Shown in pieces: positions 33,996 to 37,334 of a DNA stretch of 64,000 nt. The position numbers were made by a program, and so were the translations under genes. Positions within the stretch are counted from its first letter, which is position 1, and every line of letters begins with the position of its first letter. The notes beneath the pieces were generated by a model. It searched no databases, had not been told where the DNA came from, and was given only the letters and a program-made list of their open reading frames with translations. This DNA is from Xanthomonas sp. Leaf148 (GTDB lineage Bacteria; Pseudomonadota; Gammaproteobacteria; Xanthomonadales; Xanthomonadaceae), in NCBI RefSeq assembly GCF_001423585.1, contig NZ_LMOP01000009.1, forward strand, positions 297,496 through 361,495. Direction: 5' to 3'.

Positions 33996-34282
33996 GTGGT
34001 CGACGCCGGGTTCCAGCGCTCCTGTTTGTTTGCACCAGTGGATGGAGATACCGCCGCGAAAAGTGGCATGGTGATCGGCTGTGGTTCTCTCCAAAGAGAC
34101 AAGATGCAATGCGTTTTGCTTGATGTCTCATCCGTCGCGAAGCCAAGCACGGAGCCCGAAGGGCTTGCTTAGTGCTGTAATTCGTGGTTGGATTTGACGA
34201 TCATCGCGATCAGGCCCGCTGTTGTGCGATGCGTAACGCGATGTCTCTGTTGATTGCCTGCTGATCGATCAGGAAACTAGCC

Positions 34283-35173
34283 ATGTTGGACGGCGCGCGT
34301 ATCTTGGTTCAAATTCCCGCGTATCGGGATCCGCAACTCGTGCATACCCTGGATAGCGTATTCGAGCAGGCCGCCAATCCTGATCGGCTGCGCGTATCGG
34401 TCTGTTGGCAGTGCGCACCGCGTGATCGACTGCCGCATCGCTATGCCGACATGCCTGGATTGCGAATCGATCGGGTCGATTATCGAGACAGCCGTGGTGC
34501 CAATTGGGCGCGGCGGCGCGCACAACGCCAATGGCGCGATGAACCTTACTCCTTAATCATCGATTCGCATCTGCGCTTCGCACGCCATTGGGATCGCAAG
34601 CTCATCGCGATGTTGGAAGGGTTGAAATCGATGGGTGTGAAGCGGCCCGCATTGACCTGTTACCCGCCGGATTTCGATCCGCAGACCTATCCGGTGGGCA
34701 GATCGCAGGTGCCGATGAAAATCTATAAAGAAGCGTATATCGATGGTGTGCTCGCGCACTTTGCCGGATTCGAGTTGCCGTTGTGGCGGTGGCTTAAAGC
34801 ACCAATCCCTGCACAGTTCATGGCGTTGGGATTTCTGTTTACCGAAGGCCGCTTCAATCGAGACGTCCCGTTCGATCCCAATGTCTATTTTTTCGGTGAC
34901 GAGATCACTACCGGGCTGCGTGCCTATTGCCACGGTTATGACTTGTTCCATCCACATCGCGTGCTTGCCTGGCATGCTTACGATCGCAGCACACGTCGTT
35001 GCCACTGGGAAGATCACGCCACATGGCGTGCACGCGATCTTCGATCGTTCGTGCGTGTTCGACGGATTCTGTCCGGGCATGCCTATCGCGATTATCCGCT
35101 TGGCATGCGCCGCTCGATCGCCGGATACGAGCGCTGGATCGGCATGCCGCTGCTATTGACACAGTCGCGGTGA
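34283..35173 (+). CDS. PF11397-type GlcNAc-transferase-like glycosyltransferase
   Basis: A 296-residue glycosyltransferase of the GlcNAc (Skp1 Gnt1-like, PF11397) family. Diagnostic features are V-Q-I-P-A-Y-R-D near residue 9, the R-G-A-N-W-A-R-R motif near 71, and I-D-S-H-L-R-F with the metal-binding D-S-H at 94-96. A second acidic motif F-F-G-D-E-I lies near residue 212. Eukaryotic members transfer GlcNAc to hydroxyproline of Skp1. The stop overlaps the next gene by 4 bp (GTGA), so translation is coupled to the hydroxylase-like protein. GC content is below the flanks, suggesting transfer. Confidence 0.8.
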   Translation: MLDGARILVQIPAYRDPQLVHTLDSVFEQAANPDRLRVSVCWQCAPRDRLPHRYADMPGLRIDRVDYRDSRGANWARRRAQRQWRDEPYSLIIDSHLRFARHWDRKLIAMLEGLKSMGVKRPALTCYPPDFDPQTYPVGRSQVPMKIYKEAYIDGVLAHFAGFELPLWRWLKAPIPAQFMALGFLFTEGRFNRDVPFDPNVYFFGDEITTGLRAYCHGYDLFHPHRVLAWHAYDRSTRRCHWEDHATWRARDLRSFVRVRRILSGHAYRDYPLGMRRSIAGYERWIGMPLLLTQSR

Positions 35174-35787
35174 GCCGATCCTCGCGCAGTGCCGAATCGG
35201 CAGACATGCTCGCGCATGGCGCAGATGACAGGATCATCGTGGTTAATGACTTTCTGTCGCCGTTGCAGTGCCAACACTTGCTTGGCGAGCAGGATTCTGG
35301 CGAATGGATCGCCAGCACCGTTGCGCGGGGTAATGGTTCGACGGTGACCGGCGGCGGACGCAAGAGCGATTCATTGGTGCTGCCTGGCAATGCAAGGATT
35401 GCCCACCCACTGTTGCGCGATATCGAAGGCAGGCTTCAAGCGATGTTTGGGGTTCGGCCTGCTCATCTTGAACCCTGGCAGATGACCCGCTATCGACGTG
35501 GAGATGCTTATGACTACCACCTCGATTGCGGCGTGCAGCATCCCAGCGGCGAGCGCAAGCGCACACTGCTTATCGTTCTGGAGCAACCTGCCCGTGGTGG
35601 CGCAACCCATTTTCGAGCCTTGAACCGCAGCATCAAGCCGCTCGTCGGACGCTTCGTGCTGTGGCGGAACCTGTTGCCCAACGGCCGTTGTAACCATGCC
35701 ATGATCCACGCGGGTCGCCCTGTCTGGCAGGGGTGCAAGACGATCCTTACCACCTGGGAACACCTGCGGCCTTATCACGCCTCGTAA
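35170..35787 (+). CDS. Prolyl-4-hydroxylase-like 2OG-Fe(II) oxygenase
   Basis: A 205-residue dioxygenase with a GTG start, overlapping the glycosyltransferase stop by 4 bp. The iron ligands H117-x-D119 (Y-D-Y-H-L-D-C) and H180, and the 2-oxoglutarate-binding K190 in H-A-G-R-P-V-W-Q-G-C-K, match P4H domains, so the site is complete. The P4H core spans about residues 25-200 with little extra. P4Hs hydroxylate peptidyl proline in proteins. Position between the GlcNAc-transferase-like gene and a small Pro-rich protein gene strongly suggests a modification role. Confidence 0.83.
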   Translation: MSRSSRSAESADMLAHGADDRIIVVNDFLSPLQCQHLLGEQDSGEWIASTVARGNGSTVTGGGRKSDSLVLPGNARIAHPLLRDIEGRLQAMFGVRPAHLEPWQMTRYRRGDAYDYHLDCGVQHPSGERKRTLLIVLEQPARGGATHFRALNRSIKPLVGRFVLWRNLLPNGRCNHAMIHAGRPVWQGCKTILTTWEHLRPYHAS

Positions 35788-35800
35788 CAGGGAGATCGCC

Positions 35801-36097
35801 ATGGCAACCAGCAAGGACGACAAGATCGTCAAAGACATCATCAAGCGTTACGGCGGCACGCTCGATTTGAAGAGCAGCCCGTATTTGATCGTCGAGATCA
35901 TCCGGCAATTTGGCCCTCAGCTCGCTGGCGGTGTCGCCGCCTCGTGTCAGCCGCCAGGTGGTACCAAGCCGGGCGACCCTTCGGACCTGATCAAAGAATT
36001 GAAGGTGAAGATGCAGGAAGTCGCACGCCTATCTGTCGCTTTGGAGAAATCAATCAAATTGACATCTGCGGTAAAAGCGAGAGCGAGCAAAAATTAA
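35801..36097 (+). CDS. 98-residue protein, candidate substrate of the modification pair
   Basis: A small cytosolic protein with no signal peptide. A helical N-terminal half (residues 1-45, K-D-I-I-K-R-Y and I-V-E-I-I-R-Q-F) joins a helical C-terminal half (62-90) through a linker C49-Q-P-P-G-G-T-K-P-G-D-P60 that contains all four clustered prolines (51, 52, 57, 60). GGGAG lies just before the ATG, and the gene starts 13 bp after the hydroxylase stop. I do not recognise the family. The linker is the natural hydroxylation and glycosylation target if the operon works as a unit; this is inference. Confidence 0.7.
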   Translation: MATSKDDKIVKDIIKRYGGTLDLKSSPYLIVEIIRQFGPQLAGGVAASCQPPGGTKPGDPSDLIKELKVKMQEVARLSVALEKSIKLTSAVKARASKN

Positions 36098-36152
36098 CGG
36101 ATGCACGATGGTTTATCGAGCGTCCGTTGTCTATTTTGTTCTACCTGTCCGG

Positions 36153-36662
36153 TCATGTTGCTGCTGATAACCTTGGCAGCGACTGATGGCCGCCGCGATA
36201 GTCGTGCACGGTGTGCCAAACGCCGTCGGCATCCTGTTCGATCAACGCAATACTGCGCAAGGTCGCGCTGATATCGGCCAAGTCCTGCGCAAGTTCCACC
36301 AGGTCATAGGCAGCGCCGGCGGCATGGCGTGGATGTAGCAGCGTGATGTGCGCGCCATGCGGTTTTGCCTGCGGCCAAAGAACGGAGCGCCTGAGACGGT
36401 CGTGCGCTCTGCGCACTGGATCGGGTGCAACATAAGGCGCCGTCTGCGGGCGCCTGCGGCGCACCGGACCGCAGGCCGAGCGAAACGTAGCAAGTTCACG
36501 CCGGCATGCGTCGATCGTCTGCCATGCCGCCAATTCGTCGTCCGGACAGGGCGCGACATGTGTCGCGATACGCGAATGCTGCCGCGGCTCGAGCCGCAGT
36601 CTGACCTCCTCGATTGGACTGCCGCAGTCCTGGAGTAGAAGAAGCGTGAGTTGTCGCCGCAT
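36153..36662 (-). CDS. 2H phosphoesterase / 2'-5' RNA ligase-like protein
   Basis: A 169-residue protein with the two repeated modules of the 2H superfamily. The second H-x-T motif is clear in P-H-G-A-H-I-T-L-L-H near residue 117. The first is degenerate, A-T-H-V-A-P-C near residue 33, where family members have H-x-[TS]-L. Other shared elements are G-P-V near 65 and the closing I-E-Q-D-A-D-G-V-W-H-T-V. Activity is uncertain because the first catalytic motif may be weakened. The start at 36662 (M-R-R-Q-L) follows the family; an open frame continues to 37001. It is convergent with the substrate-like gene. Confidence 0.55.
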   Translation of the reverse strand: MRRQLTLLLLQDCGSPIEEVRLRLEPRQHSRIATHVAPCPDDELAAWQTIDACRRELATFRSACGPVRRRRPQTAPYVAPDPVRRAHDRLRRSVLWPQAKPHGAHITLLHPRHAAGAAYDLVELAQDLADISATLRSIALIEQDADGVWHTVHDYRGGHQSLPRLSAAT

Positions 36663-36776
36663 CTGCCAGAACGTTGATGATGAGGGGCGTGCCCGGGCTT
36701 CACGTGTGGAGCCGGGCCGCGCTCGCGCAACGTCGGACACGTTACTCTGTCTACGTCCTTGTCTGCCAAACGTTGA

Positions 36777-37334
36777 ATGTCCATCGTCCTGACCCAATTC
36801 GCCCGTACCCGCCTGTTCCCACGCGAGCGTCGTCGCAACGCCATCCAGGACTGCACGCCTGAGCAGTTCATCCAGCGGCTCAACGATGAGACCCCGTTGC
36901 GCGTGATCGAAGGCTATGCCCCGTTCTGCCAGCTGCAGGTGCACCGCAACTGGACCTCTACCCGCTGCCTCACTGTGCCGATCACCGATGACAATCGCCA
37001 CTTGTTGCGTTCCGGCTACGAGGCGCGCAGCACCCAGGAGCTAGCGGTGCTGGTGCGCTGGTTTGAGGGTGTCGAGCCGCCAGTGGCAGCGTATCTACTG
37101 CCTATCCTGTACAGCCGCGACCAGCTGGCGAAGGAAGGCTCGCCGATCGACGCTGACTGGGGGGTTGTCGGTTGCCTCTACACCGCCGAGCCAGAAGAAA
37201 TCCCGATGGCGCCGATCACGATGTTGCGCAACGCATTGGGCGTAGAGGAGGGAGGCTCGGGGGTGTCGCTGGATCGCGAAGCGTATCGACGCAGCGTGGC
37301 GTTCTGGGAGCGCAATGCGAATTGGAGGCCATAG
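36777..37334 (+). CDS. DUF3228 family protein
   Basis: A 185-residue soluble protein matching the DUF3228 pattern. It opens with a basic segment (S-I-V-L-T-Q-F-A-R-T-R-L), has a central V-P-I-T-D-D-N-R-H-L-L-R-S-G-Y-E-A-R block (about 70-90) and ends with W-G-V-V-G-C-L-Y-T. Family function is unknown. It is transcribed away from the 2H-like gene, with a 114-bp shared upstream region. An 8-bp stem with a TTTT loop at 37357-37376 follows the gene without a T tract. Confidence 0.8.
   Translation: MSIVLTQFARTRLFPRERRRNAIQDCTPEQFIQRLNDETPLRVIEGYAPFCQLQVHRNWTSTRCLTVPITDDNRHLLRSGYEARSTQELAVLVRWFEGVEPPVAAYLLPILYSRDQLAKEGSPIDADWGVVGCLYTAEPEEIPMAPITMLRNALGVEEGGSGVSLDREAYRRSVAFWERNANWRP

What the first reader, a model, noticed from the sequence alone, without database searches (positions are those of the whole stretch)
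34283..36097. Candidate bacterial hydroxylate-then-glycosylate protein modification operon
A PF11397-type GlcNAc-transferase-like gene overlaps, by GTGA, a gene with a complete prolyl-4-hydroxylase active site (H117, D119, H180, K190). A third gene 13 bp later encodes a 98-residue protein with a Pro/Gly-rich linker (P51, P52, P57, P60) between two helical halves. In eukaryotes the Skp1 system uses the same two activities in the same order. Coupled translation plus a small co-encoded Pro-rich protein is the simplest reading of a modification system with a dedicated substrate. Lower GC than the flanks suggests transfer.
Basis: partly seen in the sequence, partly recalled or inferred. Interest (0 to 1): 0.8.

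Follow-up and report, generated by a model that had tools for sequence, protein, structure and literature searches.

The report
Xanthomonas hydroxylase, sugar-transferase, small-protein cassette
A rare gene cassette in a Xanthomonas bacterium holds a proline-hydroxylating enzyme, a protein-type sugar transferase and a small linker-containing protein; the hydroxylase and the small protein occur together in two bacterial genera, which suggests, but does not prove, a bacterial two-step protein modification like one known from amoebae.

Summary
At 34283-36097 lie a PF11397 glycosyltransferase (GT60-type, DxH motif), a collagen-type prolyl 4-hydroxylase (P4H; H117, D119, H180, K190) overlapping it by GTGA, and a 98-residue orphan protein 13 nt later. 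The cassette sits in a low-GC insert of about 2.8 kb. Of 35 Xanthomonas genomes searched, only this one and X. populi have it; the other 33 have the empty site.

P4H and the small gene are linked in a second genus of the family (G363): P4H 36% identical and reciprocally closest among the P4H frames fetched, small protein 45% over its first 42 residues, same order and strand, 31 nt apart. In X. populi the two are one open frame, by loss of the P4H stop. The glycosyltransferase is not linked: no P4H was found around 20 other GT60 loci, and G363 gave no GT60 match. So the conserved unit is P4H plus small protein; the sugar-transfer step rests on one lineage.

Best reading: P4H hydroxylates its co-encoded protein and the GT60 enzyme probably glycosylates the product (confidence 0.35). 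The P4H is not of the Skp1 (PHD/PhyA) type, so this may work like the Skp1 pathway but is not a member. No target proline is established.

The parts
34283..35173 (+). PF11397 / GT60-type GlcNAc-transferase-like gene, 296 aa, DxH motif D94-S-H96
   Evidence: phrog_24687 glycosyltransferase 8.8e-73
35170..35787 (+). collagen-type prolyl 4-hydroxylase (2OG-Fe(II) oxygenase), 205 aa, GTG start overlapping the GT stop by GTGA; Fe ligands H117, D119, H180 and 2OG-binding K190 (roles recalled from the family)
35801..36097 (+). 98-aa orphan protein: helical N-terminal part, Pro/Gly linker about 43-60, long C-terminal helix; candidate substrate or partner of the P4H
   Evidence: model of low confidence
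34003..36776 (.). approximate insert relative to other Xanthomonas genomes, between the DUF2058 gene (ends 33995) and the DUF3228 gene (starts 36777)
   Evidence: empty site in 33 of 35 genomes of the genus; 8 empty sites read; GC 58.4%

Best explanation
A horizontally acquired protein-modification cassette. The P4H uses 2-oxoglutarate, O2 and Fe(II) to hydroxylate one or more prolines of its co-encoded small helical protein, either in the flexible linker (PPG and KPG) or at P27. The GT60-type enzyme then transfers a sugar, probably alpha-GlcNAc, to the hydroxyproline or to a nearby Thr/Ser. Shown here: the gene anatomy, active-site residues, purifying selection, and linkage of P4H with the small gene in two genera. 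Inferred: that the small protein is the substrate. Inferred more weakly: that the GT acts on the product.
For: P4H and small gene adjacent in the same order in Xanthomonas and in G363, both diverged (P4H 36% identity; small protein 45% over 42 residues). The two P4Hs are reciprocally closest among 49 P4H frames fetched: 118 bits against 78 for the best other, and 115 against 73 the other way (the 49 include duplicate copies; copies from X. populi set aside). The G363 small protein keeps the plan of head, Gly/Pro linker and C-terminal segment. One open frame covers both proteins in X. populi. GTGA overlap of GT and P4H. GT family characters: PF11397 and the DxH motif, the motif given for GT27/GT60 in PMC7185993 (passages). 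The nearest solved P4Hs are collagen-type; the B. anthracis enzyme favours the Y proline of Gly-X-Y, that is a proline before Gly (PMC8968730 passages), and the linker holds P-P-G and K-P-G. dN/dS 0.07-0.32.
Against: GT linkage is seen only in this genome and X. populi. The P4H-small linkage rests on two lineages only. G363 is a draft with 9% contamination, and its small protein was found at E 1.5e-5 per genome in a search of 395 genomes. No linker proline is securely aligned between the two small proteins; the G363 linker is mainly glycine, with prolines at 60, 87, 112 and 113. With so few prolines and so much glycine, X-P-G could occur by chance. Synonymous divergence from X. populi is lower in the cassette (dS 0.23-0.42) than in the two flanking genes (0.49 and 0.87), which could mean later exchange between the two species. 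No biochemistry exists. The structure model is weak.
Confidence: 0.35

Rival explanations
1. P4H and the small protein form a hydroxylation-only enzyme-substrate pair. The GT60 enzyme is a separate, phage- or plasmid-type glycosyltransferase that landed upstream and modifies another target (another protein's Ser/Thr, or a surface structure).
For: The pair without a GT60 match in G363; GT60 genes without P4H at 20 other loci; GT best matched by a phage moron glycosyltransferase family and found in Xanthomonas phage XacN1.
Against: GT and P4H overlap by GTGA in both Xanthomonas genomes, and the GT is the most constrained of the three genes (dN/dS 0.07).
Confidence: 0.25
2. The small protein is not the substrate but an adaptor, scaffold or regulator that brings the P4H (and the GT) to a substrate encoded elsewhere, its C-terminal helix acting as a coiled coil.
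For: The conserved part is the helical head, not the prolines; long C-terminal helix in the weak model; continuity with the P4H in X. populi also fits a subunit. A known bacterial prolyl hydroxylase acts on EF-Tu (PMC7864055 passages), which is not a dedicated partner gene (recalled).
Against: A flexible Pro/Gly linker with X-P-G sites looks more like a substrate than like an adaptor.
Confidence: 0.25
3. A horizontally acquired cassette of no present function that is slowly decaying; co-location is accidental.
For: Present in 2 of 35 Xanthomonas genomes; P4H stop lost in X. populi and P4H dN/dS 0.32; a sub-threshold RNA-ligase-like frame lies in the same insert, with only shorter frames in X. 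populi.
Against: Open frames and dN/dS well below 1 in all three genes; the same P4H-small order in another genus.
Confidence: 0.12

Closest known systems
Skp1 hydroxylation/glycosylation pathway (PhyA + Gnt1) of Dictyostelium and Toxoplasma
   Same: A prolyl 4-hydroxylase and a PF11397/GT60-type GlcNAc-transferase (Gnt1 as a GT60 member is recalled), here in one operon; no signal peptide recognised by eye in the three proteins
   Different: P4H is of collagen type, not PHD/PhyA; the candidate substrate is an unrelated small protein; none of the four insert frames scanned by Pfam is an extension enzyme
Bacillus anthracis prolyl 4-hydroxylase (PDB 3itq, 5hv0; organism recalled)
   Same: Nearest solved relatives of the P4H (E 2.7e-11), same catalytic residues; hydroxylates synthetic collagen-like peptides (PMC8968730 passages). 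The same species makes a glycosylated collagen-like protein, BclA (same passages)
   Different: No co-encoded small partner of this family is known to me (recalled); the BclA sugars are, as I recall, not on hydroxyproline
Bacterial and phage PF11397 glycosyltransferases ('GlcNAc-transferase family protein')
   Same: Same family, 29-37% identity on 7 plasmids, 34% in phage XacN1
   Different: The six annotated ones fetched are longer (348-467 aa against 296), lie by T6SS or contractile-tail genes, mobile elements or phage genes, and have no P4H found beside them
Pseudomonas PPHD acting on EF-Tu
   Same: Bacterial protein prolyl hydroxylation (PMC7864055 passages)
   Different: PHD-type enzyme, target not co-encoded (recalled), no glycosylation known to me

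Membership tests
PF11397 / GT60 glycosyltransferase | match to the PF11397 model above its cut-off | tested here: met
   199 bits against 21
PF11397 / GT60 glycosyltransferase | DxH in place of DxD | tested here: met
   D94-S-H96; rule from PMC7185993 (passages)
PF11397 / GT60 glycosyltransferase | alpha-GlcNAc transfer to hydroxyproline or Ser/Thr of a polypeptide | not testable with these tools
   needs an enzyme assay
Prolyl 4-hydroxylase (collagen type, 2OG-Fe(II) oxygenase) | HxD...H iron triad and 2OG-binding Lys | tested here: met
   H117, D119, H180, K190
Prolyl 4-hydroxylase (collagen type, 2OG-Fe(II) oxygenase) | hydroxylation of a peptidyl proline | not testable with these tools
   needs an enzyme assay; homology alone does not exclude another residue or a small molecule
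Skp1 modification pathway | PHD/PhyA-type hydroxylase | tested here: not met
   by sequence only, no tree: none of the 9 solved sequences at E up to 0.01 nor the 2 more at E up to 10 is named PHD2 or PhyA; the 11 are named prolyl 4-hydroxylase, procollagen-proline dioxygenase, transmembrane P4H, 'predicted protein', PKHD-type hydroxylase and VP4
Skp1 modification pathway | GT60 enzyme acting on the hydroxylated protein | tested here: inconclusive
   a GT60-type gene overlaps the P4H gene but its linkage is not conserved
Skp1 modification pathway | Skp1 as substrate | tested here: not met
   the 98-aa protein matches no Pfam or NCBIfam family at E up to 1; other genes of the genome were not searched for Skp1

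The most novel reading that the evidence does not exclude
A self-contained bacterial hydroxylate-then-glycosylate system with a dedicated co-encoded substrate: a new protein family built as helical head, Pro/Gly linker and coiled-coil tail, modified in O2-dependent fashion by its neighbour P4H and then by a GT60 enzyme. The older unit is P4H plus small protein, the GT is a later addition, and the X. populi fusion would be a self-modifying form.
Probability: 0.25. Interest if true: 0.8.

Novelty: new variant of a known kind. Interest (0 to 1): 0.47.

Why it matters
Protein-bound hydroxyproline that is then glycosylated is described for plants, green algae and protists (PMC8724618 passages). In bacteria I know protein prolyl hydroxylation for EF-Tu and for collagen-like peptides, and no glycosylated hydroxyproline (recalled). 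My ten literature searches (open-licence papers only, listings, with passages of six papers) showed me no report of a bacterial P4H-GT60 pair; a likely place for one, West et al. 2004 (BBA 1673:29), I saw only as a reference in PMC8724618 and did not read. A three-gene cassette with its own candidate substrate would make a bacterial form directly testable in E. coli and bear on where the Skp1 pathway came from.

Tried and rejected
Small protein sought further: genome contigs, 163 pattern matches, 1 relative = X. populi (patterns reach close relatives only); family, 3 of 395 genomes; class, own genome only of 369; order, own plus two weak hits of 200 (E 0.02 and 0.03), both rejected because they lie in frames that overlap an evident subtilase gene (another frame) and an evident histidine kinase gene (antisense); phylum, own only of 150; genus of G363, G363 only of 27; plasmids none (with the N-terminal part alone, one chance match at E 6); phages none; viral contigs none. 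The genome sets overlap.

P4H: 25 of 398 phylum genomes match the two-row profile at E up to 1e-20, own included; the best other scores 98 bits, and none of the 29 fetched loci other than our own has the small protein. Nor had 6 of the 14 plasmid records with a P4H match (loci fetched, scanned) or 1 of the 18 phage records (fetched, scanned). Viral contigs: no P4H relative confirmed. A scan of fetched P4H loci for another Pro/Gly-rich small frame just downstream gave the G363 case and six other frames (from five loci) that I judged by eye to be unrelated or not genes.

GT in viral contigs: one weak match, 40% over about 42 residues (L118), not followed. Of three phage records with a GT match only XacN1 was fetched.

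The contig of G363 was first suspected to be contamination. Its gspE gene has strong matches (E up to 3e-85) in 11 of 25 other genomes of that genus, so it may be native; this stays open.

Promoter/terminator scan: one promoter-like site, behind the operon, no more than in shuffles; no terminator. No solved sequence matches the GT at E up to 0.1; the best PDB profile match of the small protein is 'Alphabody MA12', E 0.0012, which I took as composition. The structure model was too weak for a fold search, which was not run. The second structure job (X. populi fusion) was never accepted. The padloc library was not searched.

Full report
Observation. The first is a PF11397 glycosyltransferase (1.9e-58) with the DxH motif at 94-96. 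The second starts with the GTG of GTGA and is a 2OG-Fe(II) oxygenase (PF13640, 4e-10) whose solved relatives at E up to 0.01 are nine prolyl 4-hydroxylase-type sequences (2.6e-11 to 4e-5). The third, 13 nt on, is 98 residues long and has no Pfam or NCBIfam match at E up to 1. The four named active-site residues check out.

Place in the genome. The genus is Xanthomonas: the same-genus genome G175 has the cassette on a contig of the same number and length (18438) as X. populi CFBP1817 NZ_MDEJ01000080.1. In 33 of the 35 genus genomes the DUF2058 and DUF3228 genes that flank the cassette lie on one contig about 40 to 385 bp apart (coordinates; eight of them read, 41-240 bp). In the window they are 2.8 kb apart, and only X. 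populi shares the cassette. GC is 57.6% for the operon against a mean of 64.7%.

Function kept. Between the window and X. populi dN/dS is 0.066 (GT), 0.315 (P4H) and 0.169 (small), against 0.072 and 0.085 for the two flanking genes. dS is lower in the cassette (0.42, 0.27, 0.23) than in the flanks (0.87, 0.49), which may reflect later exchange. In X. populi a one-base deletion at the P4H stop joins P4H and small protein into one open frame. This may be a real fusion, a decaying copy or an error of a draft sequence.

It asked whether the small gene is absent from, or unlinked to, homologues of the pair. The small protein is very rare: 3 of 395 family genomes and no further case in the class, order and phylum samples. 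The third case, in G363, another genus, lies 31 nt behind a P4H on the same strand. That P4H is 36% identical to the window's. On one scale (phmmer, 49 P4H frames from the fetched loci, duplicates included) the window P4H scores it at 118 bits and the best other at 78, and the G363 P4H scores the window's at 115 and the best other at 73, X. populi set aside, so the two are each other's nearest here. The small protein there is 151 aa, 45% identical over the first 42 residues, with a long Gly-rich linker and a C-terminal segment that aligns weakly. The match was found by sequence before the P4H was looked at, so the P4H beside it is independent support. The GT is different: G363 gave no GT60 match in the family search, where 13 of 395 genomes matched, nor alone (whose answer warns that an empty result without a positive control shows nothing; the same query did match 13 genomes), nor on its 11-kb contig. 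Around 12 family, 7 plasmid and 1 phage GT60 loci no P4H was found in the DNA fetched, 3.4-6.8 kb on each side, except that one locus is cut 80 bases from its frame by a contig end.

Mechanism. The likeliest reading is an enzyme with its dedicated substrate or partner, P4H and small protein, with a GT60 enzyme that in this lineage may cap the product. For the target proline there are two candidates: the linker, with PPG and KPG, since the B. anthracis P4H favours a proline before Gly (PMC8968730 passages), and P27, the only proline aligned outside the linker, which may simply cap a helix. The model (mean pLDDT 62) has the linker disordered and helices on both sides, but is too weak to say more.

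Comparison. In Dictyostelium hydroxylated Skp1 is the substrate of Gnt1 (PMC3515798 passages), and GT60 is said to occur in prokaryotes and protists only (PMC7185993 passages). The present cassette has the two activities by family, but the P4H is of another branch by sequence search and the candidate substrate is unrelated, so it works like that pathway at most and is not a member of it. I file it as a new variant of a known kind.

Noticed in passing
36153-37001 (-): An RNA-ligase-like frame (2_5_RNA_ligase2, 21.8 bits, below the cut-off of 27) lies in the same insert and overlaps the DUF3228 gene; X. populi has only shorter frames there.
   Followed up: partly
L075 5968-7371; L076 5989-7341; L074 5995-7218: GT60-type genes on Paraburkholderia, Burkholderia and Azospirillum plasmids sit among T6SS or contractile-tail genes, the first two right behind a 'fimbrial protein' gene.
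   Followed up: no
L077 4693-5811: The gene before the Klebsiella plasmid GT60 encodes a protein with a long Pro-Thr repeat linker, the kind of stretch a Ser/Thr or hydroxyproline glycosyltransferase might use.
   Followed up: no
L119 3989-7706: Xanthomonas jumbo phage XacN1 carries a GT60-type gene next to a carbamoyl transferase gene.
   Followed up: no
L024 5298-6566 and 7499-8455: In G363 a frame with a weak trypsin-like match (16.7 bits, cut-off 27.6) follows the small gene, and a class 3 lipase gene lies a little further on.
   Followed up: partly
L037 5902-7100: A Sphingosinicella plasmid P4H overlaps a downstream gene of about 184 aa with an HEAAH motif, another P4H with a possibly coupled partner of unknown kind.
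   Followed up: no
33996-36776: The DUF2058-DUF3228 spacer varies from about 40 to 385 bp among the 33 Xanthomonas genomes without the cassette, so the site may be variable in general.
   Followed up: partly
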